A stretch of 64,000 nt of DNA. Source: Opitutia bacterium (lineage in GTDB: Bacteria; Verrucomicrobiota; Verrucomicrobiia; Opitutales; Opitutaceae). Every line of letters begins with the position of its first letter. Within the stretch, counting starts at the first letter, position 1. The notes below the pieces were generated by a model that was not told the DNA's origin, did not search any database, and was given only the letters and a program-made list of their open reading frames with translations. The position numbers were made by a program, and so were the translations under genes. The DNA lies in NCBI GenBank assembly GCA_947474365.1, contig CANJIU010000028.1:1-64000 (forward strand). Reading direction: 5' to 3'. Of the stretch, positions 23,411 to 63,330 are shown piece by piece.

Positions 23411-23443
23411 GGGGGAAGCGGGTTGGGAGTGACGTGAACCACC

Positions 23444-23467
23444 GTAGGAGCGGGCGTTCGCTCCGAC
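23444..23467. repeat. REP-like short palindrome
   Basis: A 24-bp segment starting GTAGGAGCGGG contains the perfect stem GGAGCG (23447-23452) / CGCTCC (23459-23464) with a 6-nt loop, in the gap between two divergent sulfatases. It resembles the core of bacterial REP elements. A partial relative (GGAGCGGGC with distant CGCTCCG) lies at about 36010-36090. There is no T-run, so a terminator is less likely. Confidence 0.4.
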
Positions 23468-23645
23468 GCTGCCTCTGTTATCCGGTTTTGCGGTCACGGC
23501 TCAAGCGCCAAGCCGGAGGCTTCACCCCGACAGAAATGCAGTCGAAAACACCGGACTTGCATCCGCCTGCCGGATGCACCGAATCAGGATCAGATTCCGG
23601 AGTCCTCCCCCACCCGTTCCGGAACACGATCCAGACCCTCTTCCC

Positions 23646-25272: not shown

Positions 25273-25770
25273 GTGAAAGCAATCATCGCCGCCGTGGACT
25301 TTTCCCCGCTGAGCAGTCAGGTCGTGAAAGTAGCCGCCGAACTGGCCCGCGGGCGGTCCGGAAAGATCGTGTTGCTGACCGTGCTGACAGAAACCTATTT
25401 CGCACCAGAATTTTCCCCGCCCGGTGGGAGCGCCACTCCCCTCGCGTCGGACCATGAGCAAACAGTCAGAAGTCGGCTCACCGCGATTCAACAGCGGTTG
25501 GCGGCGACGGGCGTTCCCGCGGAAATCCTCGTCCGGAGAGGGAATCCCGCCGGGCATATCCTGGAAGAGTCGCAGGAACACGACGCGGCGTACATCATCG
25601 TCGGCTCGCACGGACACAGCGCCCTTTTCGACCTCGTACTGGGAAGCACATCCCAGTCCGTTCTGAATCGCGCGAAAATGCCGGTGGTCGTCGTGCCCTT
25701 CCCAATGCGCCGGTCGCGCCGGTCGGAAGACCGCGCCGGTCAGGCTGAACCCAAAGAGGCGACACTCTAG
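25273..25770 (+). CDS. Universal stress protein (UspA family)
   Basis: A 165-residue single-domain Usp from a GTG start at 25273. It opens with KAIIAAVDFSPLSSQVVKVA and carries the ATP-binding motif GSHGHSALFDLVLGST near residues 115-130 (G-2x-G-9x-G-S/T), so it should bind ATP. A 15-residue basic C-terminal tail is added. The TAG stop overlaps the SulP TAG stop on the other strand through a shared CTAG. Usp genes often accompany SulP transporters, which suggests joint ion or stress control. Confidence 0.92.
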   Translation: MKAIIAAVDFSPLSSQVVKVAAELARGRSGKIVLLTVLTETYFAPEFSPPGGSATPLASDHEQTVRSRLTAIQQRLAATGVPAEILVRRGNPAGHILEESQEHDAAYIIVGSHGHSALFDLVLGSTSQSVLNRAKMPVVVVPFPMRRSRRSEDRAGQAEPKEATL

Positions 25771-32211: not shown

Positions 32212-33636
32212 CTAACGCTTCTTCGCTCGCGGCGTGGCGGGCGCCAACGCCTCGGCCTCCGCCACCGTCTTGGCCGCGAGTCCGGCGAGTCGCTTCACGA
32301 TCTCGGGATTTTGCGCGGCCACGTCGTGCTGTTCCCCCGGATCGGACAACAGATCGAAAAGTTGCATCTTCGCCGGGGCATCCCCAGTCGTGAGCCCAGG
32401 ATGGGCGCGGACCGAGGCTTGTTCGTAAGGTGCGAGGATGGTCACGCCATCGGGTGCGCGCGGATCCACCCAATGCTCCCCCAACCGATCGCCCGTGGCC
32501 AATCCGGGACTCGGCGCCAACAGATGTAATTTCCATCGGGCGTCCCGCACCATCGCGATCTGCCCGCCGCGCTGGCCGAAGATCACCGGATGCGGACTTT
32601 CCGCGGCACTCGTGAAAAGCGGCATGATGTCCCGCCCGTCGATGACCCGATCCGCCGGCGCCGCGACGCCCGCAACCTTCAGCGCAGTCGTAAACAAATC
32701 CATCATCACCGCCGGCTGCGCGCTCACGTGCCCGGCGGGAATCTTTCCCGGCCACCGCGCGATACACGGCACCCGATAGCCGCCCTCGTAAGAACTGCCC
32801 TTCATGCCGCGCAGGCCGCCCGTGCTTCCGCCGAACGTCGCGCCGTTGTCGCTCGTGAAGACGACGAACGTCTGCTCGTCGAGGCCCAGTTGCTTCAGCT
32901 TCGCGAGCACCTGCCCCACCCCCCAGTCCAGTTCCGCGACGGCATCACCGTAAAGGCCCGCGCCGCTTTTCTGATAAAAGGCCTCCGACGCGGCGAGCGG
33001 CTTGTGCGGCATCGCGTGCGGCAGATAGAGGAAGAAAGGGCGCGACCGGTTGCGCTCGATGAAGTCCAGCGCCCGCTCGGTGTAGCGCCGGGTGATCGTC
33101 GCCTGCACCACGGGGTACTCCACGCGCTTTTCGCCCTCGAGCAGCTGCACCGGGCGCATGTCGTTCGAGTAGGGGATGCCAAAATATTCGTCAAACCCGC
33201 GCCGCGTCGGCAGCCACTCCGGCTTCGCGTGACCGAGGTGCCACTTGCCGATCATGCCCGTGGCGAAACCCGCCGACTTGAACACCTGCGCGAGTGTCAC
33301 CTCCCGCTCGGAAAGGTGCAACCCGTCCGCGTCGGGCCCGCCGTCGGGCGCTGGATTCTGGTTCATGCCGGAGCGAAACGGGTAGCGTCCCGTCAGCAAC
33401 GAGGCGCGCGTCGGCGCGCAAAATGACATCGGGCAGTTGAAGTGCGTGAGTTTCGCGCCCTCCGCCGCCATGCGGTCGAGATGCGGGGTCTTGAACTTCG
33501 GGTGACCGTAGCACGACAGGTCACCGTAACCGAGGTCGTCCGCGAGAATGACGATGACATTGGTCGCCCGCGAGGCGGCAAAGAGCGGTGCGGCCAGCAA
33601 GAGGAGCGCGGGGAGCGCGAAGAGATTTGCTTTCAT
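32212..33636 (-). CDS. Secreted type I sulfatase
   Basis: A 474-residue sulfatase from ATG 33636 (MKANLFALPALLLLAAPLFA signal). Motifs are NVIVILADDLGYGDLSCYGH, the formylglycine site CAPTRASLLTG with Cys73, GMIGKWHLGH, LPHAMPHKPLA and FTSDNGATFGGS. The arrangement is of the arylsulfatase A / N-acetylgalactosamine-6-sulfatase type. An in-frame extension to 33867 has no signal features and overlaps the promoter region of the divergent ABC exporter. It stands apart from other sulfatases. Substrate unknown; activity depends on a formylglycine-generating system. Confidence 0.93.
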   Translation of the reverse strand: MKANLFALPALLLLAAPLFAASRATNVIVILADDLGYGDLSCYGHPKFKTPHLDRMAAEGAKLTHFNCPMSFCAPTRASLLTGRYPFRSGMNQNPAPDGGPDADGLHLSEREVTLAQVFKSAGFATGMIGKWHLGHAKPEWLPTRRGFDEYFGIPYSNDMRPVQLLEGEKRVEYPVVQATITRRYTERALDFIERNRSRPFFLYLPHAMPHKPLAASEAFYQKSGAGLYGDAVAELDWGVGQVLAKLKQLGLDEQTFVVFTSDNGATFGGSTGGLRGMKGSSYEGGYRVPCIARWPGKIPAGHVSAQPAVMMDLFTTALKVAGVAAPADRVIDGRDIMPLFTSAAESPHPVIFGQRGGQIAMVRDARWKLHLLAPSPGLATGDRLGEHWVDPRAPDGVTILAPYEQASVRAHPGLTTGDAPAKMQLFDLLSDPGEQHDVAAQNPEIVKRLAGLAAKTVAEAEALAPATPRAKKR

Positions 33637-33790
33637 CAACAACAGGGTTCGAGGGTGACGCGGGGTTGGGAGCGGAACGTAAGACTGATGACGCGAGGCC
33701 CCCTCCACGGCAACCTCGGGCAAAGGAAAAATCCGATCCCAACGCCACGGGCCGTTTGTGTTTTCCGCGGACGCGGCCAGCGTCTGGCCC

Positions 33791-35674
33791 ATGTCCCGCC
33801 ACCACGCCTCATCGGAAGATATCGCGCTTGATCGCCTGCCCAAGGCACCGCTCAACCGAGAGAGCATCCGGGAAACCCTTTCGCTCGCGCGTTATATCAA
33901 GCCCTATCGCCGGCGCTTCCTCGCCGGGCTCGCCACGTTGTTTCTCAGCGCGACCTGCGGACTCGTTTTCCCTTTTCTCGCGGGAAGTTTGATCGACGCC
34001 GCGATGCGGCCGGGCGGAGTGTCGCTGCCGATGCTCGGGCCGCTGAGCCTGAATCAAGTGGCGTTGATTTTGGCAGCGGCGGTTTCCCTGCAGGCCCTGG
34101 CTTCGTTCAACAGCGCGCTGGCGTTCAATCGCGTGGGCCAGAGCGCCCTCGCCGATCTTCGCCGGGAATGCTACCAGCGGCTGATCGCGCTGCCGATGGC
34201 GTTCTTCGGCCAGCGCCGGATCGGCGAGCTCACGAGCCGGGTTTCTACCGACGTCGCGCAAATCGAGGGCGCATTGATCGACGCCCTGCCCCAGATGTGC
34301 CGTCAATCCGTGTTCCTGCTCGGCGGCATCACGCTGATCGCGATCACGTCCGGCCAGTTGACGGCCGTGATGCTCGGGACGCTGCCAATCCTGATTGCAG
34401 CGGCGGTTTTTTTCGGCCGACGGCTGCGGCGTTTCTCCCGGGAGACGCAGGACCAGCTCGCGGCCACGAACACGATTGTCGAGGAGACACTGCAGGCGAT
34501 CGCGAGCGTGAAGGCCTTCGCCAACGAAACGTTCGAGCTGGGCCGATACGACGCCTCCAACCGCCGCGTGCTGGCGGCGGCGCTGAGCGCGGCGCGGTGG
34601 CGGGCGGTATTCGTCGCGTTCTTCATTTTGGCCCTCTTCGGCGGCATCGTGATCGTGCTGTGGTTTGGTGCGGGGCTGCTCCAGAGCGGGAAGATCACGC
34701 CGGGCGAGCTGACGCGTTTCGTGCTCTATTCCACCTTTGTGGCGGGGGCGATGGGCCAGTCGGCGGAGTTGTTCAGCCAGATCCAGAAGACGGTCGGCGC
34801 CACCCAGCGCGTCCGCGAACTCCTGCGCGAGCCAACGGAAATCGATCTCGATCACCGGCGCGCGACCACCGCCACGATGCCACCCGGCCGCTCAAAGGGC
34901 GCGGTGGAGTTTGCCGACGTGTGCTTTCGTTATCCGGCGCGAAAGGAAGTAGCGGTGTTGCGCCACCTCAACCTGTCCGCCCGCCCCGGCGAACGCATCG
35001 CCCTCGTCGGTCCCAGTGGCGCCGGCAAGTCCACCATCACGGCGCTGCTGCTGCGGTTCTACGACCCAGAGAGCGGCCACCTGTTGATCGACTCGCGTGA
35101 CGCCCGTGACTATCCGCTCACCTGGCTCCGCGCGCAGATGGCGATCGTGCCCCAGGACGTGCTGCTCTTTGGCGGCACGATCGCCGAGAACATCGCCTAT
35201 GGACGACCGGGTGCGGACGAGGCGGCGATCCGCGAAGCCGCCCGGCAGGCCAACGCCGACGTGTTCATCCGCGCTTTTCCGGAAGGTTATGCGACGCTGG
35301 TGGGCGACCGCGGCATCAAGCTCTCCGGTGGGCAGCGCCAGCGCATCGCGATCGCCCGCGCCATTTTAAAGAACCCGGCGATCCTGATCCTCGACGAAGC
35401 CACGAGCTCGCTCGACAGCGAAAGCGAATCGCTCGTGCAGGTCGCGCTCGATCACCTGATGCAGGGCCGCACGACGTTCATCATCGCCCATCGCCTCGCC
35501 ACCGTGCGCAACGCCGATCGAATCGCCGTGATCGACGCCGGTCAGGTCGTGGAGCTGGGCACCCACGACGAGCTGGCCGCCCGGCCCGACGGCCTCTATC
35601 AACGCCTCAGCGCGCTGCAATTCGGCCAACTGCCCGCGACCGAACCAGGTACGCCGCTCGAAGCGCAGCCCTGA
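33791..35674 (+). CDS. ABC exporter, fused permease-ATPase (MsbA/lipid-multidrug type)
   Basis: A 627-residue half-transporter from ATG 33791. Six hydrophobic segments lie in residues about 35-320 (for example FLAGLATLFLSATCGLVFPF) with the coupling region FFGQRRIGELTSRVSTDVAQ. The ATPase domain has Walker A GPSGAGKST near 407, the Q-loop VPQDVLLF, signature LSGGQRQRIAIARA near 512, Walker B ILILDEATSSLD, and the H-loop IAHRL. It should dimerise and export a lipid, drug or peptide. It is divergent from the sulfatase with about 155 bp between the starts. No partner genes point to a substrate. Confidence 0.92.
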   Translation: MSRHHASSEDIALDRLPKAPLNRESIRETLSLARYIKPYRRRFLAGLATLFLSATCGLVFPFLAGSLIDAAMRPGGVSLPMLGPLSLNQVALILAAAVSLQALASFNSALAFNRVGQSALADLRRECYQRLIALPMAFFGQRRIGELTSRVSTDVAQIEGALIDALPQMCRQSVFLLGGITLIAITSGQLTAVMLGTLPILIAAAVFFGRRLRRFSRETQDQLAATNTIVEETLQAIASVKAFANETFELGRYDASNRRVLAAALSAARWRAVFVAFFILALFGGIVIVLWFGAGLLQSGKITPGELTRFVLYSTFVAGAMGQSAELFSQIQKTVGATQRVRELLREPTEIDLDHRRATTATMPPGRSKGAVEFADVCFRYPARKEVAVLRHLNLSARPGERIALVGPSGAGKSTITALLLRFYDPESGHLLIDSRDARDYPLTWLRAQMAIVPQDVLLFGGTIAENIAYGRPGADEAAIREAARQANADVFIRAFPEGYATLVGDRGIKLSGGQRQRIAIARAILKNPAILILDEATSSLDSESESLVQVALDHLMQGRTTFIIAHRLATVRNADRIAVIDAGQVVELGTHDELAARPDGLYQRLSALQFGQLPATEPGTPLEAQP

Positions 35675-39659: not shown

Positions 39660-40526
39660 TCATCGATTCGCGTCCAGACACAGCCGAAAACCAATCGTGT
39701 AGTCCAGGCGTCCCGCGGATCCGCCGGACCGGGCCGCCGAGCGGCCGAGATTCGCCGCCGTTCTCCAACTGCCCCCGCGCGCCATCCGGTAATACCCACG
39801 TTCCGGACCCGTCGGATCCGTCACCGCCCCGCCGGGATAATCGCCATACCAGTCGTAGCACCACTCCAACACGTTGCCCGCCATGTCGAAAAACCCCCAG
39901 GCGTTGGGCCGCTTCCGGCCGACCGGATGGGTCGTACCCTCGCTGTTGGCGCTATGCCAGGCCATCGCGTCGGGCTCACCGGCATAGGCACCCGTCGTGC
40001 CCGCGCGACAGGCGTACTCCCACTGCGCCTCGGTCGGCAGGGTGTAGGCCAGGTCCGCGCCGAGCCGACCCGCGCCGCGCTCCCGCTCGGTCAACGTGCG
40101 ACAGAACGCCATCGCATCGATCCATGAAACGCGCTCCACCGGCCGATCTTTGCCGTCAGCCTCAAAGGTGCTCGGGTTCACTCCCATGACCGCCAAGTAT
40201 TGGGCCTGCGTCACTTCGGTCTTACCCAGCCAGAATTCCCGGCTGAGGGTCACCTGCATGCGCGGTCCCTCCGCCTTGTTACGCTCCGGCTCTTCGCGCA
40301 CACTCCCCATCGTGAAGGTGCCGGGCTCGACGCGGATAAGTTCCAGGTTGAGATCCGTGATCACGCGGGTCCCCGGTGACGCCACCGACGCTTCCGGCGG
40401 CGCGGCGTCTACCGCCTCATTGCAAAACGCGGCGATGACGCCGAGCGTCACGATTCGCACCGCGGCGACAAAGGAACGGCGGAGCAAGCAGCAATCAAAC
40501 CGGACAGGACAACGATCGGTGATCAT
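39660..40526 (-). CDS. SUMF1/FGE-sulfatase-fold protein without the catalytic cysteines
   Basis: A 288-residue exported protein from ATG 40526, with a hydrophobic signal (VAAVRIVTLGVIAAF). The C-type-lectin-like SUMF1 fold is clear: VEPGTFTMGS, KTEVTQAQYLAVMGVNPS, PVERVSWIDAMAFCRTLTER, YTLPTEAQWEYACRAGT, GFFDMAGNVLEWCYDWY and MARGGSW...GFRLC. True formylglycine-generating enzymes have two Cys in the segment after RGGSW (C-x4-C before the NRY-like motif). Here it reads RTAANLGRSAARSGG with none. It is probably not the sulfatase-maturing enzyme but one of the many relatives of other function. Confidence 0.88.
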   Translation of the reverse strand: MITDRCPVRFDCCLLRRSFVAAVRIVTLGVIAAFCNEAVDAAPPEASVASPGTRVITDLNLELIRVEPGTFTMGSVREEPERNKAEGPRMQVTLSREFWLGKTEVTQAQYLAVMGVNPSTFEADGKDRPVERVSWIDAMAFCRTLTERERGAGRLGADLAYTLPTEAQWEYACRAGTTGAYAGEPDAMAWHSANSEGTTHPVGRKRPNAWGFFDMAGNVLEWCYDWYGDYPGGAVTDPTGPERGYYRMARGGSWRTAANLGRSAARSGGSAGRLDYTIGFRLCLDANR

Positions 40527-40773
40527 GGTGGGCGTGGTGGGGTGGGTCGGGCCAAACGTCGCACCCGCCTCCATCAAGCGTACCGCGCCAATGGAAAAAC
40601 GTGCGGCGCTTGCGAACGCCCGTACAAGGCGAAGTCTGCCGTCACGCGTCGTTTCTGGCTCGTCATTTCTTGGCGGAAACGGGCCGTTTGTTGCCAAGGT
40701 CGATCGCGATGCGGCCAAACTCCGCCGGAAAGTTAGTCACGGCGGCCGACCCACACCGACGCGGCGCCGGAGG

Positions 40774-52000: not shown

Positions 52001-52277
52001 CACGACGTTCAACATTGGCGGACTCGACAACTACGCCGGCACCGTCGCCGATCCGAATCACCCGTTTATCCGCAGCTCGACGATCTCCGGAGGTGCGTTT
52101 GGCAGTTATCGGAAGAAGATCTACCGCGACCGCGTGATGTGGAAGATTCAGCTCAACGCCCAAAACCTCTTCGGCGAACACGGCCTCCGCCAAATCTCCG
52201 TCAATCCCGACCAGTCGAAAGTCTGGGGCGTTGCACCGCCTCGCACCTGGGAATTGTCGAATTCGTTCGAGTTCTGA
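49089..52277 (+). CDS. TonB-dependent receptor
   Basis: A 1062-residue receptor from ATG 49089 (MKTVCLATALFAVSNCAFGQ signal). SDPIVLSPFIVDTSADQGYR is the TonB-box region; the plug continues STSGSRLKTDLKDIAASVNV and has RGANSILFGLSEPAGLISYS. The end is RTWELSNSFEF, an aromatic BAM signal. The frame extends 40 codons upstream of this start, but that lead is basic and has no signal. It starts the rightward arm and ends 28 bp before the fourth receptor. The two plugs differ, so they may bind different ligands or act with different partners. Confidence 0.93.
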   Translation: MKTVCLATALFAVSNCAFGQVATKASVESDPIVLSPFIVDTSADQGYRASSSTSGSRLKTDLKDIAASVNVLTNEFLDDLGATDIASALALVAGAENDQTTDPTSIGLNQGYLGGDFGDVNTRSGEVRVRGLGRASTAANYVPVIASTDRYNIERAEFLRGANSILFGLSEPAGLISYSTKIASLQKDISKVETKVDNFGTHRGVLDLSRTLVKDKLALRGVGLYSDKRYLVDTAYWRDKRLFLTGTYRPFKATTVRAFVEHTDTGGRRPNFRTSQDNVSGWLALYNKYAPLLTPAQLASAFYWDPTVFNASGGPTNSVVTVGGQTIDLGLLRRGNDGNANATALFYDNRDWKTPQGNTATITSSRNGAGTVEAAAFRGMFVRSSDPLENRPNPYADPQITNRAILPYDRVEIGALPGNYRWERGRKINVTVDQHLTDGLDLSASFQREVFRQKQQYSPIAQQQQVSIDVNVKLPDGRNNPNFLRPYIFGRQLGDYNHQTADNFLVQANYDFDFAKKTERLGWLGFHRLTSLYTRAEADRLTYRWNVQIDNTIPGVMTAGLTAASRHLYQFWYIGDPVQVGDTGLRLTGFPTTTVTTADRAYNFIYYDSTTRTWKQSPTPLQTSNQLIAGGRNYTSQENDGLGASLQSFYWKRRIVTLVGWRKDNVDAFTHTLVSTAEPLTGATRSDYLKSSIPQLSNSKATATQSIVFHATNWLRLFASRSENFAATASRTDPLFRPIAPQNGITKEAGIGLDLFNGKLNLRASAYNSSQNLATSGGSASTASLRVEVVEDQIYQALAATGRLAEWSTFGPNGVTKNEYNRPLDVSATEDSVSKGVEAEVVYTPLPGWRMAFNASKLENVSTNVGRELGEFLAVRAPFYRKYFQEGLRTDGSTNARPSTATLISTNFANAVAANYVGNILKEGTSNPGISKYSFKLLTSYGFRQGLLKGFSVGGNASWEQGKIVGFALLNTTFNIGGLDNYAGTVADPNHPFIRSSTISGGAFGSYRKKIYRDRVMWKIQLNAQNLFGEHGLRQISVNPDQSKVWGVAPPRTWELSNSFEF

Positions 52278-52305
52278 GCTCACTCCACGCCCCCGCTGTC
52301 CTCCC

Positions 52306-55300
52306 ATGAAACTCTTCCCCACCTTCGCGGCATCATGCGCGCTTTCCGGCCTCGCCGCTGCTCAGGTCGTCCCGGCTTCGTCCACCGCCGCGACACCCGC
52401 AGCCAGCGACTCCGTCGTTCAACTCAGTCCGTTTACCGTCGTCTCGGAAAACGACCGCGGCTATCGCGCCGAAAACACCCTCTCCGGTTCCCGACTTAAC
52501 TCCTCCCTCAAGGACACACCCGGCGCCCTCGATGTGCTCACCAAGGAATTTCTCGACGACATCGGCGCGACCACGCTCGAACAGGCGCTTGCATTCTCCA
52601 CCAACTTCGCGGAGGACGCGGGCGATTTCGACAGCCAGGGCGTGATCAACACGATCTTCCCCGGCGCGCAGCTCAACGTGAACTTTCGCACCCGCGGCCT
52701 GGGCGGCACGATGGCCCGCAATTATCTGCAGACTGATTCGCGCCCGGCCTTCTACACCGTAGAACGCATCGACAACTCCAGCGGCCCCAACGCCATTCTC
52801 TTCGGCCTCGGCAGCGCCGGTGGCGTCGTCAACATCACGACCAAGCGCGCCAACGTGAATCGAGCCGCGTACGGACTCGATTTCCTCTTCGACAGCAACA
52901 GCAGCCGCCGCGTCACCGCGGACGCCAACCAGGTGCTGATCCCCAAGACCCTGGGATTGCGCGTCAACGGCATCGCCGAACGCACCAAGAAATACCGCGC
53001 CAATTTTTCCAACAACACCGACGGCGTCCATCTCGCCACGACGTGGCGCGCCACGGATCGCACGGAAGTCCGCGCCGAGTTCGAACGCGAGCACACCACC
53101 GGTAGCGTCGCCTATCCCGGTCCCCATCTCGTCAACACCTACGTCACGAACTGGCTCGACCGCGGCTCTCCGGTCTTCGATCTGCCCGTCAACTGGGACA
53201 CGCTCACGGCCGCCCAGCGCAACGCCCTCGTGAATCCCGCCGGCTCGCCCGTCGCCTTCAACACCATCGGCGCCGCCGCCAGCCCCGTCGTCGTGCAGAA
53301 TGGCGACCGGTCGTTCCTCATCAACGCCGCCAACTCACTGTTCACCAACTCGAGCCTCGGCAGCAACGACGCCAACAACCGGCAGACGATCGATCCGCGC
53401 TTCTTCAATCCTCGCGGCAACATCAACGGCCCCGGCGGCCGCAAGGGCGTCGATCGCCAGATCTTCGCCGTCGCCGTCGATCACAAACTCGCCGAGCAAC
53501 TCTACCTCAACCTCTCCGCCTCGCGCGAAACCGGCCGTGCGGACACTTATCAGGCCTTCGCCAACGGTGCCGCGAGCGGCGCCACGATTCTCACCGACGC
53601 CAACCGTACGTTCACCAATAGCACGCAGATTCTCAACCTCGGCGGCACCGCCCTCGCCACCAACGCCGCCGGCCAGGCAATCAACCCGTTCGCCGGCCAA
53701 TATTACACCCAATCGCGTTGGTTACATCGCACCCAGCGCGGCGAGCGCGAAATTATCCAGGGCACCGCCGCCTCGCAGTTCAACCTTGGCCGCTGGCTCG
53801 GCTCGCATCGCGTGGTCGGCACCGCCTCCTACATGGAGAGTTCCGCCGGCAGCGAGAATTTCCGCGACTCGTGGCTCTACGCGCCATTCAACGCCGATCC
53901 CGTCAACACCAACAACGGCGTCGTCCGCCGCCACTACGCCTCTCCACTCGACGCCGCCAATTTCTTCGTGCCCGACTGGCGCGAGTTCCCGACCCTCACG
54001 TGGAACCACCCGACGCGCGGCCCGATCAGTACCGGCTGGGTGACTGAGGGCGAAAATTTCCGCACCGCCCGCCAGTTCTCCTACCTCGGCGCCGCGCAGA
54101 GCCGTTTCTTCAACAACCGCCTCGTGCTGACGACCGGCTACCGCGTCGATGAGACCACCGACTACGTCTACGGCCAGAAGATCGTTCGCCCGCCTGGCTG
54201 GGAGGCCAGCAACGGCCTCAACGTGCTCGATCGCACCAGCGTTGCCAAGACCCCCAATCGCGGACCCACGCGCACCCTCGGCGGAGTGTTTCACGTGACT
54301 CAATGGATGTCCGTCTACGCGAACAAGAGCACCAACTTCGGTCCGCCCCGCGGCAACATCGTCGGCCCCGACGCCGTCACGCCGCCCAACACCGCCGGCA
54401 AGGGCCTCGACGCCGGCCTCAAGTTTGATCTCTTCGGCGGCCGCGTCGCGTTCGACCTCGGCTACTTCGACACCTCGAACAACAGCGTCACCGAGGTGCT
54501 CACGCTCAACCTCAACAGCGCCGACAGCATCCGCGGCGCCTACAACGCGGTCTTCCCGATCCTCAACAATCCCGCCGGCACCACCCGGCTTTTCAACTCC
54601 GCCGATCCCGCCGCTGTCGCCAGCCTCATCGCCAGTTACCCGCTGGTCCGCCCCGTTTACAACGCCAACGCCGACATGCTCGACCAGGCGAGCCGCGGCT
54701 ACGAACTCCGCCTCACGGCGAACCCGTTGGCGGGCGTGCGGATTCGCGCGACCGTTTCCAAGACCGACCGCGAACGCGAGAACCTCTACCGTTTCACGCT
54801 CCCGATGGCCGCCCAGCTCCGCACCTACATCAAGGACCTGCAGGCGAAAAATCCGTCCGTAAACGTCGGCAACCTCGCGACCGCCGCGAATCCCACCGCC
54901 ACGATTGCGAGCCTGCTCGACGCTCTCGACCAGCGCCTCGATCAGTCGATCGATTCGCTCAGCAATAATTTCGGCGGCGGCAAACTCACCGCCAACCTCA
55001 CCGCCAGCTTCGATCTGCCGGGCCGGCTCAAGGGCTGGGGCATCACCACCAGCACGCGCTACAAGTCGGGCGCCTATACCGGCGCCTACGAGATTCGCAC
55101 CGGCGGCGTCGCGACCGGCGCGTTGCTCGACACCATCCCGCTTTTCGGCAACAGCACGATCGACCACGACGCCTCGCTCCGCTACCGGACCCGCTTCAAC
55201 TGGCTCCGAAAAACCGCCGTCACTTTCCAACTGAACATCATTAACGTCCTCGACCAATCCGCCCCAATCGTCCGCCGCATGCGGACCGTCGTCATCGCCC

Positions 55301-55398
55301 CGGGCGCCCCGGCGCCGACGTCCGCCGACCTCGTCCCGTCCTCCTACTTCATTCGCACACCACGCGCATGGACGCTCACCTCGAAATTCGATTTCTGA
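52306..55398 (+). CDS. TonB-dependent receptor
   Basis: A 1030-residue receptor from ATG 52306 (MKLFPTFAASCALSGLAAAQ signal). DSVVQLSPFTVVSENDRGYR is followed by NTLSGSRLNSSLKDTPGALD and SGPNAILFGLGSAGGVVNIT, the best match in the window to the classic plug end. Codons are strongly C-ended and the barrel is Asn-, Thr- and Ala-rich. The end is WTLTSKFDF. It is second in the rightward arm; 213 bp separate it from the sulfatase, so downstream genes may share its transcript or have their own promoter. Confidence 0.93.
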   Translation: MKLFPTFAASCALSGLAAAQVVPASSTAATPAASDSVVQLSPFTVVSENDRGYRAENTLSGSRLNSSLKDTPGALDVLTKEFLDDIGATTLEQALAFSTNFAEDAGDFDSQGVINTIFPGAQLNVNFRTRGLGGTMARNYLQTDSRPAFYTVERIDNSSGPNAILFGLGSAGGVVNITTKRANVNRAAYGLDFLFDSNSSRRVTADANQVLIPKTLGLRVNGIAERTKKYRANFSNNTDGVHLATTWRATDRTEVRAEFEREHTTGSVAYPGPHLVNTYVTNWLDRGSPVFDLPVNWDTLTAAQRNALVNPAGSPVAFNTIGAAASPVVVQNGDRSFLINAANSLFTNSSLGSNDANNRQTIDPRFFNPRGNINGPGGRKGVDRQIFAVAVDHKLAEQLYLNLSASRETGRADTYQAFANGAASGATILTDANRTFTNSTQILNLGGTALATNAAGQAINPFAGQYYTQSRWLHRTQRGEREIIQGTAASQFNLGRWLGSHRVVGTASYMESSAGSENFRDSWLYAPFNADPVNTNNGVVRRHYASPLDAANFFVPDWREFPTLTWNHPTRGPISTGWVTEGENFRTARQFSYLGAAQSRFFNNRLVLTTGYRVDETTDYVYGQKIVRPPGWEASNGLNVLDRTSVAKTPNRGPTRTLGGVFHVTQWMSVYANKSTNFGPPRGNIVGPDAVTPPNTAGKGLDAGLKFDLFGGRVAFDLGYFDTSNNSVTEVLTLNLNSADSIRGAYNAVFPILNNPAGTTRLFNSADPAAVASLIASYPLVRPVYNANADMLDQASRGYELRLTANPLAGVRIRATVSKTDRERENLYRFTLPMAAQLRTYIKDLQAKNPSVNVGNLATAANPTATIASLLDALDQRLDQSIDSLSNNFGGGKLTANLTASFDLPGRLKGWGITTSTRYKSGAYTGAYEIRTGGVATGALLDTIPLFGNSTIDHDASLRYRTRFNWLRKTAVTFQLNIINVLDQSAPIVRRMRTVVIAPGAPAPTSADLVPSSYFIRTPRAWTLTSKFDF

Positions 55399-55611: not shown

Positions 55612-57084
55612 ATGCCTCCCCCGAACATCCTCTTCGTGATGACTGACCAGCAGCGATTCGACACGATCGCCGCCCTCGGTCACGCCCCCGCCCGGACGCC
55701 CAATCTCGACCGACTCGTCCGCCGCGGCGTGGCCTGCACGAACGCCTATTCCTCATGCCCGGTCTGCGTTCCGGCGCGGTACTCGCTCATGACCGGCTGC
55801 GAGCCGTCGAAGACCAGCTGGCTGAGCAATTGGGCCCCAGGTGACCACGTGCGCGAGCGTTGCGGGCCCTACTTGGCCGAAACGCTCGCCGCGCGTGGCT
55901 ACCGCACCTGGGGGCTGGGAAAATTTCACACCGAACCACGGCACGAGCCGCTCGGTTTCGCCGTGCACGAATACAGCGAGGAACTCTGGGCGACGGAGGA
56001 GGAATTTCGCAACGATGACTACGTGCGCTGGCTGCGCTCCCGTGCGCCCGACTTCAGCCATCTCGAACAGGTGCACGGCGAACGCAGCGACATGTACTAC
56101 GTGCCGCAGCTGCGCCCCATGCCCGCCGCCCTCACGGTCGAATCGTGGCTCGCCGGCCGCGCAGTAGAGGAGCTGGGAAAAGCGGATGCGCGCCCGTATT
56201 TCGGCTTCGTCTCGTTCGTCACACCGCACCCCCCAATCGCACCGCCCGTTCCGTACAACCGGATGTTCAATCCGGACGACATGTCGGATCCATTGCTGGG
56301 CGATCCGGCCGTCGACACGGCCGACGACTACCTTGCCTGGATGAATCACGCCGTCTGGGCGGAGGACATCCCGCCCTCGCAGGCGCGGCGCCTGCGCGCG
56401 CGCTATCTCGGCTCAATCACGTTCATCGACGACTGCATCGGCCGCATCCTCGACGCGGTGGAGGCGCGCCCTGACGCCGACAACACCGTCATCTGCTTTT
56501 TCTCCGACCATGGGGACCATCTCGGCGACCACCGCGCCTGGCAGAAGGAGAGTTTTTTCGAAGCCTCGTGTCGCGTGCCGTTGCTCGTGAGCTGGCCCGG
56601 CCACCTGCCCGCCGGCGCCCGCTTCGAAGGACTCGCCGCACTCACCGATCTCTTCGGCCTCGCGACGTCCGCAACCGGGAACGGCGAATGGCGCGACGGC
56701 CATCATCTGCTCGGCGCATTGCGCGGCGCCGCCCCAGCCCGCGAAACGCTCATCGGCATGTACGGCACGCCTGGCACGCGGCATTTCAAGTGCATGGTGC
56801 GGGAGGGCGACCTGAAGTACATCTGGCTCGCCAACGGCGGGCGCGAATTGCTCTTCAACCTGCGCGCCGACCCACAAGAGACCCGCTCACTCACCACGCA
56901 GGAACCGGCCCGTCTGGCCGCGCTGCGCGACCGTGCGGTCCGCACCTTGGCGGAACGTGAACTCACGCAGCCCGCCGTCGAAAATGGCACGTTGAAGGCG
57001 CTGCCGTTCGAGCCCTTTCCCCGCACCCGCATCAAGCAATTCGCGCGCGGCGTCACCGATTTCGGCCAAGGGCCCACCACGTGA
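55612..57084 (+). CDS. Sulfatase without signal peptide
   Basis: A 490-residue type I sulfatase from ATG 55612, starting MPPPNILFVMTDQQRFDTIA with no signal sequence, hence probably cytoplasmic, unlike the three other sulfatases here. The formylglycine site is CVPARYSLMTG with Cys52. Further motifs are GLGKFHTEPR, FVSFVTPHPPIAPP and FSDHGDHLGDHRAWQK, typical of choline-sulfatase-like and heparan-sulfatase-like branches. It overlaps the GPH symporter gene by 4 bp (GTGA), so the two are translationally coupled. This suggests that a sulfated sugar taken in by the symporter is desulfated inside. Confidence 0.92.
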   Translation: MPPPNILFVMTDQQRFDTIAALGHAPARTPNLDRLVRRGVACTNAYSSCPVCVPARYSLMTGCEPSKTSWLSNWAPGDHVRERCGPYLAETLAARGYRTWGLGKFHTEPRHEPLGFAVHEYSEELWATEEEFRNDDYVRWLRSRAPDFSHLEQVHGERSDMYYVPQLRPMPAALTVESWLAGRAVEELGKADARPYFGFVSFVTPHPPIAPPVPYNRMFNPDDMSDPLLGDPAVDTADDYLAWMNHAVWAEDIPPSQARRLRARYLGSITFIDDCIGRILDAVEARPDADNTVICFFSDHGDHLGDHRAWQKESFFEASCRVPLLVSWPGHLPAGARFEGLAALTDLFGLATSATGNGEWRDGHHLLGALRGAAPARETLIGMYGTPGTRHFKCMVREGDLKYIWLANGGRELLFNLRADPQETRSLTTQEPARLAALRDRAVRTLAERELTQPAVENGTLKALPFEPFPRTRIKQFARGVTDFGQGPTT

Positions 57085-58499
57085 AGTCCGCTCCTGTCGC
57101 TCCCGCCGCCCCTGCGCCTGGCTCCGAACGCATCGCCACCGGCACGCGCTTCGCCTACGGCTCGTCGGCCTTCGCCGAAAACCTCGGACTCAATTCCGTC
57201 AACCAACTCGCCAATCCTGTTTTCAACCTGACCCTCGGCGTCAGCCCGGTTCTAGTCGGCGCGGCCATCGCGCTGCCCCGGCTCTGGGACGCCGTGATGG
57301 ACCCGTGGATCGGCAACCTCAGCGACAATTGCCAGTCCCGCTGGGGCCGGCGCCGTCCGTTCATTTTGATCGGCGCCATCCTCACCGGCCTCTGCGCCGC
57401 GGGTATCTGGTATTTTCCCGACGGCCGGTCGCCCACGTTTTACTTTGGCTGGCTCGCCGTCGGGTCGTTTCTGCTCGCGACGGCCTATTCGATCTTGGTC
57501 GTGCCCTACGGGGCGCTCGGACTCGAGCTCACGCGCGACTATCACGAACGCACGCGCCTGATGGGCGCGAAGTCGATGCTCCACAAGCTCTCGGGTGTCG
57601 TGAACCAGTGGCTCCTGAAAATCGTGCAGCTCGTCGGGAGCAACAGCCTGGTGGCCGGCAGCCGTTTCTGCGGCGTCATCATCGGTTTTGTCGTCGCCGC
57701 GCTCGGCGCGATCACGGTCTGGCGGGTCCCCGAGCGGGTCCGCCCCGCCGTCGCACCCGGCCCGAGAATTTCCACCTGGCGCGGCTGGCGCGAGACGATC
57801 AAGCGCCGGGATTTTGTCCTCCTCGCGACGGCCCAATGTCTCATCTACGCGAGCTACCTCGTCATCGATAACACTGGATTCTATCTGAACGTCTTCTATG
57901 TGAACGGCGGCGACATGGCCCAGGGAGCGCTGATGAAGGGCATCGCGGGGACGTTTTTCCAGGTCGGCGGCCTCTGTGCCATCCCCGGCATCGTCCGCCT
58001 CTCTCAGGGGATCGGAAAGAAAAATGCCTTTCTCCTCTGCACCGCCTCCATCGTCCTCGCCGGCATCGCCAAGTGGTTCTGCTACGTGCCCAACGCCGGC
58101 TGGCTCCTTGTCATTCCCTCGCTTTTCATGGCGCCCGGCCTGGTCGCCGTGATGGTGCTCGTCCCTTCGATGACGGCGGACATCTGTGACCTCGACGAGG
58201 TCAAGACCGGCGCGCGCCGCGAGGGGATGTTCAACGCCGTCCTCGGCTGGATGCTCAAGGTCGCCCTCTCCGGCTCCATTTTTCTCGCCGGCGTCGCGTT
58301 GGACTGGACGGGTTGGAAAACGTCACTGAAGGCCGCGCAGTCCGCGGAGACGTTTCTCGCCATGCGTATCGCATTCAGCGCGGGCACGATCGTCTTCGCG
58401 CTTCTCGCCGCCGCCCTCATCGCCTGCTACGGCGTCACGGAGGAGGACGTCGCCGCGTCACGTCGCGCGATGCGTGACAAGGCCGCCGCCGCAAGCTAA
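57081..58499 (+). CDS. GPH-family sugar:cation symporter
   Basis: A 472-residue inner-membrane protein from GTG 57081 with about twelve hydrophobic segments. The family signature is seen early: IALPRLWDAVMDPWIGNLSD followed by SRWGRRRPFILIGA. A second GPH hallmark is PSMTADICDLDEVKTGARREG near residue 370. Members take up glycosides, pentosides, hexuronides or melibiose with H+ or Na+. The coupling to a cytoplasmic sulfatase suggests transport of a sulfated mono- or oligosaccharide. Precise sugar not shown by sequence. Confidence 0.92.
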   Translation: MKSAPVAPAAPAPGSERIATGTRFAYGSSAFAENLGLNSVNQLANPVFNLTLGVSPVLVGAAIALPRLWDAVMDPWIGNLSDNCQSRWGRRRPFILIGAILTGLCAAGIWYFPDGRSPTFYFGWLAVGSFLLATAYSILVVPYGALGLELTRDYHERTRLMGAKSMLHKLSGVVNQWLLKIVQLVGSNSLVAGSRFCGVIIGFVVAALGAITVWRVPERVRPAVAPGPRISTWRGWRETIKRRDFVLLATAQCLIYASYLVIDNTGFYLNVFYVNGGDMAQGALMKGIAGTFFQVGGLCAIPGIVRLSQGIGKKNAFLLCTASIVLAGIAKWFCYVPNAGWLLVIPSLFMAPGLVAVMVLVPSMTADICDLDEVKTGARREGMFNAVLGWMLKVALSGSIFLAGVALDWTGWKTSLKAAQSAETFLAMRIAFSAGTIVFALLAAALIACYGVTEEDVAASRRAMRDKAAAAS

Positions 58500-58561: not shown

Positions 58562-59932
58562 ATGCACACGCGCCTTCTCTTCTTCGCCTTCATCCTCACC
58601 GCGGTTAAGGCGCTGTCCGCCGCTCCCGCCGCATCACCCGACTGCATCTTGATCGACCACGTCTGGTCCGGGCACCCTGTGCCGTTCGCCCTGCTCATCG
58701 AACGCGGCCACCAATTCATCGCGTATTATGACGCCGAACGCCGCATCGCCCTTGCCGGGCGCAGCCTCCCCGACGGTCCCTGGGTCCGCGTCCGGCCCGA
58801 AGGGCGCCCTGTGCCGAAACGCGATCACCCGTCCAACGCCGTCGGCTGGGACAGCCACAACAGTCTCCACCTCGCGCTGGATCGCGACGGCTGCCTGCAC
58901 CTCTCCGGCAATATGCACGCCGACCCGCTGGTATACTATCGCACGCAGCGGCCCTTCGACCTCACGACGCTCGAGCGCATCGACCGGATGACCGGCGACC
59001 ATGAGGATCGGGCGACGTATCCGGTTTTCTTTAGCAACGCGGCAGGGGAACTCCTCTTCCGCTACCGCGACGGCGGCAGCGGGAATGGCAACGACTACTA
59101 CAACCGCTACGACTCCGGCGCCCGCTCGTGGCGGCGATTGCTCGACACTCCGCTCCACGACGGGGAAGGCGAGCGCAACGCCTATGCCACGGCACCCGTC
59201 ATGGGCCCCGACGGCCGATTCCATCTCGTCTGGGTCTGGCGCGAAACTCCCGCCGCCGAGTCGAACCACTCGCTCTCTTACGCCCGCAGCCGCGATCTCA
59301 TCCACTGGGAAACCAGCACCGGCCAGCCCATCGTTCTGCCGATCACGCTCGCGAAAAGCGACATCATCGACGCTGCGAAACCCGGCGGCGGCCTCGTCAA
59401 CATGACCCGCGACCTGGGCTTCGACGCCCAAGGCCGTCCGCTCGCAGTGTACCACCGCTACGACACGCGGGGAATGTCGCAGGCTTACGTCGCCCGCCCC
59501 AACGCCAAAGGCGGATGGGACGGGCACGCGCTGAGCAACTGGACGTTTCGCTGGGAATTTTCCGGCGGTGGCAGCATCCCAAGTGAAGTGTCGCTCGGCC
59601 GCCCCGTGCCCGCGCCAGACGGCACCGTGATCGTCGACTACTCGACGAAGGCCGCGGGCTCGGGGCGTTTCCAGCTCAACAGTGAAACGCTTGCCGTCAT
59701 CGCGAAGCTGCCGCCCGTCCCGTCCAGCATCCCTGCCTCGCTGCGCCAAGTGCGCTCGACGTTTCCCGGACTTTCCGTGCAACTCCAAAACCACCGCGGC
59801 GAAGGCCGCACATGGGTGCTGCGCTGGGAGACGCAGGGCCGAAACCGGGACCGCCCTCATCCCACGACGCCGCCACCCTCGGAGCTGCGACTGTACGAGT
59901 TCCCTTCCGCCGTCCCCGATCGGCAGGAGTGA
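58562..59932 (+). CDS. Exported BNR_4 beta-propeller protein, possible polysaccharide lyase
   Basis: A 456-residue protein from ATG 58562 with a signal peptide (about 1-20). The family is BNR_4, a seven-bladed propeller that includes sialidase-like proteins and the PL24/PL25 ulvan-lyase fold. The key segment is GWDSHNSLHLALDRDG followed by LHLSGNMH: His99 and His119 are 20 apart. Tyr153 and Arg169 (in LLFRYRDGGSGNGN) are 16 apart. These intervals equal those I recall for the catalytic His/His and Tyr/Arg of a PL25 ulvan lyase. A lyase acting on sulfated uronate polymers fits the neighbours, but is inferred. Confidence 0.8.
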   Translation: MHTRLLFFAFILTAVKALSAAPAASPDCILIDHVWSGHPVPFALLIERGHQFIAYYDAERRIALAGRSLPDGPWVRVRPEGRPVPKRDHPSNAVGWDSHNSLHLALDRDGCLHLSGNMHADPLVYYRTQRPFDLTTLERIDRMTGDHEDRATYPVFFSNAAGELLFRYRDGGSGNGNDYYNRYDSGARSWRRLLDTPLHDGEGERNAYATAPVMGPDGRFHLVWVWRETPAAESNHSLSYARSRDLIHWETSTGQPIVLPITLAKSDIIDAAKPGGGLVNMTRDLGFDAQGRPLAVYHRYDTRGMSQAYVARPNAKGGWDGHALSNWTFRWEFSGGGSIPSEVSLGRPVPAPDGTVIVDYSTKAAGSGRFQLNSETLAVIAKLPPVPSSIPASLRQVRSTFPGLSVQLQNHRGEGRTWVLRWETQGRNRDRPHPTTPPPSELRLYEFPSAVPDRQE

Positions 59933-60002: not shown

Positions 60003-60734
60003 TCACTCCGGCAGCACCTTGATCGCGAGCGCGCGAAACTCCACCGGGTCGTTGTGATTCTGCAGCGTGATCGGCCCTTCGGCCGGGACGCCAACGACGC
60101 GCGCACCGTCGACCACCGGCACGTCGTTGAGGACGACACTGACCCGGTCACCCCGCATTGTGATCACAAACCGGTTCCATTCCCCGACTCCGCGGTCGGC
60201 CCGGACGCGTGGCATTGTCTTCATTCGCTCCTCCTTCGTCGCCGCCAGGTCCTTGAACTTCGTCCCGACCTCACCGCTGCCGCAGGGTTCGCACCAGATG
60301 TTCACCTGGGCCGCACGGACGCCGCGCAAAAACACTCCACTGTCTCCCCAACTGAGATACTCCTTCATAATCAATTTGCCCTGCGCGTCATGCTGCTCAA
60401 GGCCGTCTTCCGTGAGGAGCTGCAACGGCTTCATCTTCGGCGTGCCCGTCAGCCGCCACTCGAGCGTGAGCACGAAATTTCGCACCCGCCGCGTCGTCGA
60501 GAGATCATAGTTTCTCCCGGCGACGCGCTTCGGCTGGTCGCCGCGCAGCCGAATCACGCCATCGGCGATTTCCCACACGTGATCGAGGTGCGCCGGATGC
60601 TCCCAACCGGCCCAGCTCCGGCCGTCAAAGAGCGGGACGAAACCGTCCGATGACGTCCCTTCCGCGGCGGCCAAACCAAGAATCGAACTCCAAAGCAGAA
60701 ATCCAAGACGCAGGAAACAAGGGAGGTCAGACAT
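60003..60734 (-). CDS. DUF1080 (3-keto-disaccharide hydrolase-like) exported protein
   Basis: A 243-residue protein with a signal peptide (LRLGFLLWSSILGLAAAEG). The DUF1080 concanavalin-like fold is marked by FVPLFDGRSWAGWEHPAHLD, VWEIADGVIRL, NFVLTLEWRL, GDSGVFLRG, GEWNRFVITMRGD and PITLQNHNDPVEFRALAIKV. Members are often found with Gfo/Idh/MocA oxidoreductases, and some hydrolyse 3-keto-glycosides. It is convergent with the BNR_4 gene and divergent from the transglutaminase gene, with a Gfo/Idh/MocA gene about 1.2 kb away on the same strand. The activity here is inferred. Confidence 0.88.
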   Translation of the reverse strand: MSDLPCFLRLGFLLWSSILGLAAAEGTSSDGFVPLFDGRSWAGWEHPAHLDHVWEIADGVIRLRGDQPKRVAGRNYDLSTTRRVRNFVLTLEWRLTGTPKMKPLQLLTEDGLEQHDAQGKLIMKEYLSWGDSGVFLRGVRAAQVNIWCEPCGSGEVGTKFKDLAATKEERMKTMPRVRADRGVGEWNRFVITMRGDRVSVVLNDVPVVDGARVVGVPAEGPITLQNHNDPVEFRALAIKVLPE

Positions 60735-61856: not shown

Positions 61857-63266
61857 TCACACCTTCCAACCCGCGCGCGCCTTGATCGCGACGAGCGCGT
61901 TGAGCGACGGATCGTTGGTCACGCGGCCGGCCTTCGCATCCCACTCGATGCGTTTGCCGGTGCGCATCGCGAGCACGCCGAGCAGCACCATCTCGGAAAG
62001 CGGCACCGAGTATTCGAAATTCGATCCCGGCATCGGGCCGGTCTTCGCGATCGCGTCGAGCCACTCCTTCATCGGCCCGCCGATCACGCGCGGAATCGTC
62101 GCCGGCGGGCGGTTCTTTTTGAATTCCTCCCAGGTCGCGTTCGGCAGCAGCCGCGGGCTGTCGGGCCGGCCGCCCGGCGCAATCAGCGTGTGCTGGCTGC
62201 CAAACATGATCATGCCGCGCGCCGGAAATCCCGTCTTCTTCGCGTCGTCTTCCCAGCCCCGCGGCGCGGACGGTTTCTTCCGCTCGCCCTCCAGCCACTT
62301 GAGCGTGACGGGCGGGCGCTGGCCGCGCGCCGGAAACTTGTACGTCAGCTCCGCCCACTCTGGCACGATTTCCGGATGCACCGAGCCCACCTCCACGTCG
62401 ACCGAGGTCGGAGCGCCGAGATCCAGGGCCCAGAACGGCGCGTCGAGCGTGTGACACGCCCAGTCGCCGAGCATGCCGTTGCCGAAATTCCACCAGCCGC
62501 GCCAACGCACCGGCGCGATGCTCTCGTGGTACGGCCGCACGTCCGCCGGTCCGAGCCAGAGATCCCAATTCAACGTCGACGGCGGCGTTTGCACCGGCAG
62601 CGGCAGCGAGGCGGGCCGCTGAAAATAATGATCGTTGAACGTGGGCGACCAGGCCTGCACCTCGCGCACGTCACCGATCGCGCCGGCCGTGACCCACTCG
62701 CGCATCAGCCGGATGCCCTCGGTCGCCCGGCCTTGATTGCCCATCTGCGAAATGATCCCCTTCTTCTTCGCCGCGTCGCGCAGCGCCCGCGCCTCGCCGA
62801 CGGTGTGGGTGAGCGGTTTTTCGACGTAGACATGCTTGCCCCGCTGAATCGCCATCATCGCCGCTGGAAAGTGGTGGTGATCAGGCGTGGAGACGGTGAC
62901 GGCGTCGATCTTGTCGGACATCTTCGCGAACATCTCGCGGTAATCCTCGAAGAGCGGCACCGACGACAGATCCGCGCAGGTGAGCTGGGAGTTTTTCTTC
63001 AGGTCCGCTCCGCGCTTGTAGGTGGCCTTGACGTGCACCTGATCGGGATCGCACAGCGCGACGATGTTCACCCGCGGGTCCTTCATCATCTCGCCGACGG
63101 CCGCCCAGCCGCGATTGGCGATGCCGATACAGGCGACGTTGATCTTGCCGTTGGCCGATCCGCCCGCCTGGCCGATGCTGAAGCGGGGCAGCGTGAACGC
63201 GGTGGCCGCGAGCGCGGACGTCTTGAGGAAGGTGCGGCGGGACTGGGGTGAGTGCGAGGAGTTCAT
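61857..63266 (-). CDS. Tat-exported Gfo/Idh/MocA-family oxidoreductase
   Basis: A 469-residue protein from ATG 63266. The N-terminus SPQSRRTFLKTSALAATAFT is a twin-arginine signal, so the cofactor is bound before export. The Rossmann part has INVACIGIANRGWAAVGEMM and ALCDPDQVH, and the family motif HVYVEKPLTHTVGEA with the catalytic-region Lys-Pro. A long C-terminal domain contains WNLDWLWLGP-like segments (seen as NWDLWLGPADVRPYH) typical of this exported branch. Enzymes of this type oxidise or epimerise sugars with bound NAD(P). With DUF1080 it could form a keto-sugar route. Confidence 0.92.
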   Translation of the reverse strand: MNSSHSPQSRRTFLKTSALAATAFTLPRFSIGQAGGSANGKINVACIGIANRGWAAVGEMMKDPRVNIVALCDPDQVHVKATYKRGADLKKNSQLTCADLSSVPLFEDYREMFAKMSDKIDAVTVSTPDHHHFPAAMMAIQRGKHVYVEKPLTHTVGEARALRDAAKKKGIISQMGNQGRATEGIRLMREWVTAGAIGDVREVQAWSPTFNDHYFQRPASLPLPVQTPPSTLNWDLWLGPADVRPYHESIAPVRWRGWWNFGNGMLGDWACHTLDAPFWALDLGAPTSVDVEVGSVHPEIVPEWAELTYKFPARGQRPPVTLKWLEGERKKPSAPRGWEDDAKKTGFPARGMIMFGSQHTLIAPGGRPDSPRLLPNATWEEFKKNRPPATIPRVIGGPMKEWLDAIAKTGPMPGSNFEYSVPLSEMVLLGVLAMRTGKRIEWDAKAGRVTNDPSLNALVAIKARAGWKV

Positions 63267-63330
63267 CAGAGAGGAGTAATGACGATGGCGGGGCAACTTG
63301 GTGACCGTGACCCGAAAACGGTTACCGGCA

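What the first reader, a model, noticed from the sequence alone, without database searches (positions are those of the whole stretch)
58562..59932. BNR_4 protein with an ulvan-lyase-like active site
His99 and His119 are 20 residues apart and Tyr153 and Arg169 are 16 apart, in DSHN and FRYR-SGNGN contexts. As I recall, these are the same intervals as the His pair and Tyr/Arg pair of a PL25 ulvan lyase. Annotation usually stops at 'BNR repeat'. Set in an operon with receptors, a sulfatase and a sugar symporter, this may be an uncharacterised polysaccharide lyase family acting on a sulfated uronate polymer.
Basis: partly seen in the sequence, partly recalled or inferred. Interest (0 to 1): 0.65.

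Follow-up and report, generated by a model that had tools for sequence, protein, structure and literature searches.

The report
Unassayed uronate lyase near PL42
This bacterial gene, usually labelled only "BNR repeat protein", carries the complete catalytic centre of enzymes that cut sugar chains at glucuronic acid, but the pocket that recognises the neighbouring sugar has been rebuilt, so it probably belongs to an untested branch of such enzymes with its own target.

Summary
P0001 (58562-59932, 456 aa, signal-peptide-like N-terminus) has His99/His119 and Tyr153/Arg169 at PL25 spacings. The spacings alone occur in 40% of shuffles; what matters is that D97, H99, H119, R169, Y208, R227 and N280 are invariant in 42 homologues (Y153 in 41).

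The nearest characterised relatives are PL42/GH145, not PL25. Sequence and fold both rank the GH145 structures first, then FoRham1 (PL42), then PL24/PL25. P0001 aligns residue for residue with FoRham1's catalytic and +1 subsites. The GH145 hydrolase His48 is Glu47 here, so a lyase is expected.

The query's clade is separated from the characterised PL42 branch by a fully supported split and mostly lacks PL42's rhamnose-subsite residues (Tyr26, Gln276, Arg331, Glu381). I found no report of an assayed member. Relatives sit beside GH88, KduI, DUF2264/GH154 and arabinogalactan-type GHs, and once inside an ulvan plasmid. A sulfated substrate is not shown: the two closest homologues with readable upstream genes have no sulfatase there.

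Verdict: a probable uronate lyase, a new variant beside PL42, with an unassigned -1 sugar. Whether CAZy's PL42 already includes it could not be tested.

The parts
58562..59932 (+). BNR_4 seven-bladed beta-propeller protein, predicted secreted uronate lyase (P0001, 456 aa)
   Evidence: ORF; PF15892 285 bits; model mean pLDDT 87.9; Foldseek and VIA-align best hits are GH145/PL42 structures
58562..58624 (+). Signal-peptide-like N-terminus (MHTRLLFFAFILTAVKALSAA)
   Evidence: read from the sequence; helix 4-17 in the model; no signal-peptide predictor was run
58709..59542 (+). BNR_4 domain, residues 50-327
58850..58858 (+). Asp97-Ser98-His99: Asp bridge and predicted base/acid catalyst (FoRham1 Asp83, His85)
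   Evidence: D and H 42/42 in the clade; roles from PMC8377490 and PMC10951650
58907..58918 (+). Gly116-Asn117-Met118-His119: second catalytic His (FoRham1 His105) in a clade-specific context ([FWY]DHH in most PL42)
   Evidence: G, N and H 42/42 in the clade
59018..59020 (+). Tyr153 (FoRham1 Tyr150)
   Evidence: 41/42
59066..59068 (+). Arg169, predicted carboxylate neutraliser (FoRham1 Arg166)
   Evidence: 42/42
59183..59185 (+). Tyr208 (FoRham1 Tyr202)
   Evidence: 42/42
59240..59242 (+). Arg227 (FoRham1 Arg220, positions the +1 GlcA)
   Evidence: 42/42
59399..59404 (+). Asn280-Met281 (FoRham1 Asn275-Gln276): Asn kept, Gln lost in the -1 subsite
   Evidence: N 42/42; Q 0/42
58700..58702 (+). 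Glu47 at the position of the GH145 hydrolase residue His48 of BT3686
57081..58499 (+). GPH-type sugar/hexuronide symporter (MFS_2)
   Evidence: PF13347 203 bits; TIGR00792 152 bits, below its cut-off
55612..57084 (+). Type I sulfatase with a CVPAR modification motif; no N-terminal signal seen
   Evidence: PF00884 143 bits; sequence; best solved relative is named choline-sulfatase
52231..55398 (+). TonB-dependent receptor
   Evidence: PF07715
48969..52277 (+). TonB-dependent receptor
   Evidence: PF07715

Best explanation
P0001 is a secreted, probably metal-independent uronate beta-eliminase with a seven-bladed beta-propeller fold, from an unassayed clade next to PL42/GH145. Predicted mechanism, transferred from FoRham1: a glucuronate-type residue binds at +1. 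Arg169 neutralises its carboxylate with help from protonated His119, Tyr153 and Tyr208. Arg227 and Ser173 position and distort the ring. His99, tuned through Asp97 and His119, takes the C5 proton and returns it to the leaving glycosidic oxygen at C4. A sugar leaves from -1 and a 4,5-unsaturated uronate stays on +1, to be removed by GH88/GH105 enzymes such as those encoded elsewhere in this genome. The -1 pocket is not the PL42 rhamnose pocket, so the leaving sugar, or the way it is held, differs. The most likely context is trimming of uronate-bearing parts of arabinogalactan-like or ulvan-like glycans. Shown here: homology, conserved residues, fold and gene context. Inferred: lyase activity, uronate at +1, exo or endo mode, and substrate.
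For: All FoRham1 catalytic and +1 residues (D83, H85, H105, Y150, R166, S170, Y202, R220) are aligned with identical residues, invariant or nearly so in 42 homologues. In FoRham1, H85, H105, Y150, R166 and R220 mutants lose nearly all activity (PMC8377490) and Asp83 is essential (PMC10951650). Fold: GH145 structures (Z 30-32) and FoRham1 (Z 27) rank first, then PL25/PL24 (Z 21-22), then lectins (Z about 16). BT3686 H48A and GH145 enzymes lacking His48 act as lyases from this same face, with a 235 nm product sensitive to GH105 shown for BpGH145 (PMC8406133). Rebuilt -1 subsite: Tyr26 missing in 42/42; Gln276 in 0/42; Arg331 in 36/36 of the PL42-side homologues against 6/42; Glu381 in 35/36 against 0/42. 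Clade split 100% SH-aLRT. Neighbours of homologues: GH88 with KduI and DUF2264; DUF2264/GH154, a family reported to be uronate dehydratases feeding GH88/GH105 (PMC12269599); GH30, GH35, GH43, GH53 and heparinase II/III-like genes. One homologue is fused to an alginate-lyase-type domain (L017). The host genome has GH88-family genes.
Against: No assay. No GH88/GH105 gene was found among the window ORFs scanned. The -1 differences come from an alignment at 25-28% identity and from one ligand-bound enzyme (FoRham1), and the query itself has an Arg at the Arg331 column. Specificity already varies among GH145-type lyases (wine AGP but not gum arabic, PMC8406133), so -1 changes need not mean a new family. 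One close homologue (L040) has Asp in place of Tyr153.
Confidence: 0.65

Rival explanations
1. An ordinary PL42 enzyme: it removes L-rhamnose from Rha-alpha-1,4-GlcA caps of arabinogalactan proteins, and the -1 differences are cosmetic.
For: Same catalytic set. The GH145 profile scores the clade 224 bits, above FoRham1 (175, a fragment) and group C (192). Arabinogalactan-type neighbours GH30, GH35, GH43. The ulvan plasmid homologue fits too, since Rha(3S)-alpha-1,4-GlcA is common to ulvan and AGP. The Sunxiuqinia homologue has a rhamnosidase-domain gene next to it.
Against: Four of the five FoRham1 residues that hold rhamnose, or fix one that does, are not kept in the clade. R333A (the Arg331 equivalent) kills the BT3686 lyase on wine AGP (PMC8406133).
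Confidence: 0.3
2. One reading: a lyase for a sulfated uronate polymer (ulvan-like), acting together with the operon's sulfatase.
For: Sulfatase in the operon; three more sulfatases, a sulfate permease and an FGE-sulfatase-domain gene in the window. A homologue lies beside PL25 ULA-3, sulfatases and GH88 on the ulvan plasmid pAlt76. The genome also has two PL25-like genes.
Against: The two closest homologues whose upstream genes could be read (L041, L093) have a TonB receptor directly before the lyase and no sulfatase between. The operon sulfatase shows no signal peptide, so it would act after uptake. The sulfatase cluster occurs in only 7 of 41 loci.
Confidence: 0.2
3. A uronate dehydratase or demethoxylase: the same elimination chemistry with water or methanol (from 4-O-methyl-GlcA) leaving instead of a sugar.
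For: The rhamnose-holding residues are lost. GH154 shows that elimination of water from terminal uronates exists in such loci (PMC12269599).
Against: DUF2264/GH154 genes already sit next to several members, which a second dehydratase would duplicate. The clade-specific Trp residues (W96, W327, W331) suggest a sugar platform rather than a small pocket (inference).
Confidence: 0.1
4. A GH145-type retaining alpha-L-rhamnosidase using the posterior face.
For: NCBIfam AlphRhmnaseBT3686 matches with 183 bits, far below its cut-off of 700.
Against: The sole proposed catalytic residue His48 is Glu47 here, and enzymes lacking this His had no rhamnosidase activity on gum arabic AGP (PMC8406133).
Confidence: 0.03
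5. A sialidase or a non-catalytic carbohydrate-binding propeller.
For: The name BNR; Photorhabdus lectins share the fold at Z about 16.
Against: Pfam matched BNR_4 only, with no sialidase model at E <= 0.001. The lyase residues are conserved throughout the clade, which is unexpected for a lectin.
Confidence: 0.04

Closest known systems
PL42 FoRham1 (Fusarium oxysporum L-rhamnose-alpha-1,4-D-glucuronate lyase, PDB 7esk)
   Same: Propeller fold (VIA Z 27); D83/H85/H105/Y150/R166/S170/Y202/R220/N275 all aligned and conserved; H-H 20 and Y-R 16 spacing.
   Different: About 25% identity; Tyr26, Gln276, Arg331 and Glu381 of the rhamnose subsite are not kept in the clade; FDHH is GNMH.
GH145 enzymes, since moved to PL42 (BT3686, BACINT_00347, BACCELL_00856)
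   Same: Best sequence and fold hits (profile E about 1e-113; VIA Z 30-32); same anterior lyase residues.
   Different: Posterior His48 of BT3686 is Glu47; Arg333 equivalent not conserved in the clade; separate clade, 100% SH-aLRT.
PL25 ulvan lyases (PLSV_3936, ULA-3)
   Same: Fold; H-H 20 and Y-R 16 spacing; His-His-Asp motif.
   Different: No detectable match between a PL25-like profile and the query; Trp and His at the aligned Tyr208 and Arg227 columns.
PL24 ulvan lyases (LOR_107)
   Same: Fold; His pair, Tyr, Arg; aligned Tyr and Arg at 208/227.
   Different: His pair 21 apart, Glu at the Asp97 column in the PL24-like rows, only 37 bits to the query.

Membership tests
PL42 | Catalytic and +1 set: Asp83, His85, His105, Tyr150, Arg166, Tyr202, Arg220 | tested here: met
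PL42 | Propeller fold matching 7esk/5muk | tested here: met
PL42 | Rhamnose subsite of the founder: Tyr26, Gln276, Arg331, Glu381 | tested here: not met
   Tyr26 absent 42/42; Gln 0/42; Arg 6/42 (the query itself has Arg347 at the aligned column); Glu 0/42
PL42 | Falls inside the clade spanned by BT3686 and FoRham1 | tested here: not met
   the query clade and BT3686+FoRham1+relatives are opposite sides of a 100% SH-aLRT branch (quick tree, unrooted)
PL42 | Similarity to GH145 at least that of the family's founder; grouping with PL42 apart from PL24 | tested here: inconclusive
   224 bits against 175 for FoRham1 favours inclusion; one search places PL24 among PL42 with 94; AU p 0.258 does not reject query clade + PL42
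PL42 | Lyase activity on Rha-alpha-1,4-GlcA | not testable with these tools
   needs an assay
PL25 | His, Tyr, Arg triad at PL25 spacings | tested here: met
   not specific to PL25
PL25 | Sequence similarity to PL25 and placement with it | tested here: not met
PL24 | His pair 21 apart and placement with PL24 | tested here: not met
GH145 rhamnosidase activity | Posterior catalytic His48 | tested here: not met
   Glu47
Sialidase | Match to a sialidase family model | tested here: not met
   no sialidase family at E <= 0.001 in Pfam

The most novel reading that the evidence does not exclude
The clade (Opitutaceae, Bacteroidota, Alteromonadaceae, Asticcacaulis and others) is a separate beta-propeller polysaccharide lyase family with its own -1 specificity: it cleaves the bond between a uronate and a sugar other than unsubstituted L-rhamnose, and serves different glycans in different hosts.
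Probability: 0.35. Interest if true: 0.6.

Novelty: new variant of a known kind. Interest (0 to 1): 0.45.

Why it matters
If correct, a recurring gene now labelled only "BNR repeat protein" gains a testable chemistry. The contrast between a conserved catalytic centre and a rebuilt -1 pocket also shows how one propeller lyase scaffold may have been re-aimed at different uronate glycans in lakes, soils and the sea. It would supply candidate enzymes for trimming arabinogalactan- or ulvan-type glycans and improve polysaccharide-locus annotation in Verrucomicrobiota.

Tried and rejected
Tried to settle membership with a tree including PL24-like and PL25-like rows: PL24 falls among PL42 with moderate support on a very long branch, and the AU test does not decide. 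The careful bootstrap tree did not finish, so supports are SH-aLRT only. A first gene caller picked antisense ORFs in this GC-rich DNA and was replaced by one using codon-position GC; its gene starts and some small ORFs remain approximate. Formosa P29_PDnc (ulvan oligosaccharide dehydratase) was considered as a possible relative and set aside: the catalytic residues proposed for it are Asp248 and Lys303, not a His pair, and the paper does not mention BNR; no sequence comparison was made. ALT3695 was considered as a possible characterised clade member because of its length; it is a PL25, 57-64% identical to PL25 enzymes. The 2017 PNAS paper on GH145 is not held in the library. The GH145 that its authors list on the pAlt76 plasmid could be this clade's gene or the one at 24042 (L124); not resolved.

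Full report
OBSERVATION. The ORF 58562-59932 (+) encodes 456 residues. PL25 PLSV_3936 has His123/His143 and Tyr188/Arg204 (PMC6836179), and the assayed PL25 ULA-3 has 20 and 16 too, so the recollection was right. Spacings alone prove little: 40% of shuffles of this protein hold both. Conservation is what counts: in 42 homologues of the query's clade H99, H119 and R169 are invariant and Y153 is kept in 41.

WHAT IT IS. Pfam gives BNR_4 only (285 bits). NCBIfam gives the BT3686 rhamnosidase model at 183 bits against a cut-off of 700. Among solved structures the best sequence matches are the GH145 proteins BACINT_00347, BACCELL_00856, BT3686 and the B. ovatus protein 4irt, then FoRham1 of PL42, then Uly1 and the PL24-type lyases. 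AlphaFold2 gives a confident model (pLDDT 87.9). Foldseek and VIA-align rank GH145 first (Z 30-32), FoRham1 next (Z 26-27), PL25/PL24 after that (Z 21-22), lectins about 16.

ACTIVE SITE. FoRham1 chain numbering was checked against the paper (offset 2). Asp83, His85, His105, Tyr150, Arg166, Ser170, Tyr202, Arg220 and Asn275 correspond to Asp97, His99, His119, Tyr153, Arg169, Ser173, Tyr208, Arg227 and Asn280. In FoRham1 His85 is base and acid, Arg166 neutralises the carboxylate, and Asp83 and His105 tune His85 (PMC8377490; PMC10951650; a QM/MM study agrees, PMC13169297). BT3686's posterior hydrolase residue His48 is Glu47 here. GH145 enzymes without that His showed no rhamnosidase activity on gum arabic but did act on wine AGP from the anterior face (PMC8406133).

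WHAT DIFFERS. FoRham1 holds rhamnose with Tyr26, Asn275, Gln276 and Arg331, the last fixed by Glu381. In the query's clade Tyr26 falls in a deletion in all 42, Gln276 is never kept (Met 22, Gly 12, Leu 4), Arg331 is kept in 6 of 42 against 36 of 36 of the PL42-side homologues, and Glu381 in none against 35 of 36. The query is one of the six with Arg at the aligned column. The clade has its own invariants: W96, G116, N117 and W327 in all 42, and S98, D133, D270 and W331 in 40-41. The catalytic and +1 machinery is therefore conserved and the -1 pocket is rebuilt. This is an alignment-based inference.

FAMILY. In a tree of 76 rows the query clade (39) is separated from the GH145/FoRham1 side by a 100% SH-aLRT branch (quick tree). 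With PL25-like and PL24-like rows the clade (25 rows there) remains one side of a 99% branch, PL24 falls among PL42 (94), and the AU test does not reject query clade plus PL42 without PL24 (p 0.258). By profile scores the clade is as close to GH145 (median 224 bits) as FoRham1 is (175, a fragment), far from PL24 (33-34 bits) and at most 17 bits from PL25. So it is a sister or outer subfamily of PL42; whether CAZy's PL42 includes it was not testable here.

CONTEXT. In the window two TonB receptors, a sulfatase, a GPH symporter and the lyase follow on one strand. In the two closest homologues with readable upstream genes (L041, L093) a TonB receptor directly precedes the lyase, without a sulfatase. 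Other homologues in Verrucomicrobiota lie beside GH30, GH43, GH35, GH53, GH88, heparinase II/III-like and DUF2264 genes. Asticcacaulis excentricus has KduI, GH88 and DUF2264 genes immediately upstream. The Alteromonas ulvan plasmid pAlt76 has it between sulfatases and next to PL25 ULA-3 and GH88 (PMC6431674). DUF2264 is taken here as GH154 from general knowledge; GH154 has been proposed to be a family of uronate dehydratases feeding GH88 (PMC12269599). The common theme is unsaturated-uronate chemistry. Rha-alpha-1,4-GlcA is the linkage shared by arabinogalactan proteins and ulvan, but the -1 changes advise against assuming it.

VERDICT. Lyase chemistry on a uronate is likely (about 0.8 by my judgement); a -1 specificity different from FoRham1 is more likely than not; sulfated substrate and new family are open. 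The literature searched shows no assayed member of this clade, within the held open-access library and the papers opened.

Noticed in passing
L002 (G000:C5:14819-15679) and L003 (G000:C182:12916-13767): The window's genome also carries two PL25-like BNR_4 genes with the H-H 20 and Y-R 16 pattern, in a genome whose closest homologues of the query come from uncultured Opitutae.
   Followed up: partly
L017:1477-4044: A clade member in another genome of the same family is fused to a second lyase-type domain (PF05426 Alginate_lyase); that genome (G031) has six copies of the clade.
   Followed up: partly
L084, L088, L089 (Bacteroidales, open frames of about 1,377 aa): Large Bacteroidales BNR_4 proteins cluster with the fungal PL42 FoRham1 rather than with BT3686.
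   Followed up: no
L040:606-1982: A 76% identical homologue has Asp where the query has Tyr153; sequencing error or real change not decided.
   Followed up: no
window 21647-23497 (-), 23574-25190 (+), 32212-33867 (-), 25767-27998 (-), 39660-40718 (-): Three further sulfatases, a sulfate permease with a cyclic-nucleotide-binding domain and an FGE-sulfatase-domain gene suggest a desulfating lifestyle.
   Followed up: partly
window 60003-60734 (-) and 61857-63296 (-): 3-keto-disaccharide hydrolase and a Gfo/Idh/MocA protein matching the BT_2158 glycoside 3-dehydrogenase model (324 bits, below its cut-off of 750), possibly a 3-keto-glycoside route, on the opposite strand.
   Followed up: no
L026, L028, L030: GH145/PL42-type proteins of the same bacterial family continue for roughly 350 residues into a second domain that looks like GH105; Pfam was not run on it.
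   Followed up: no
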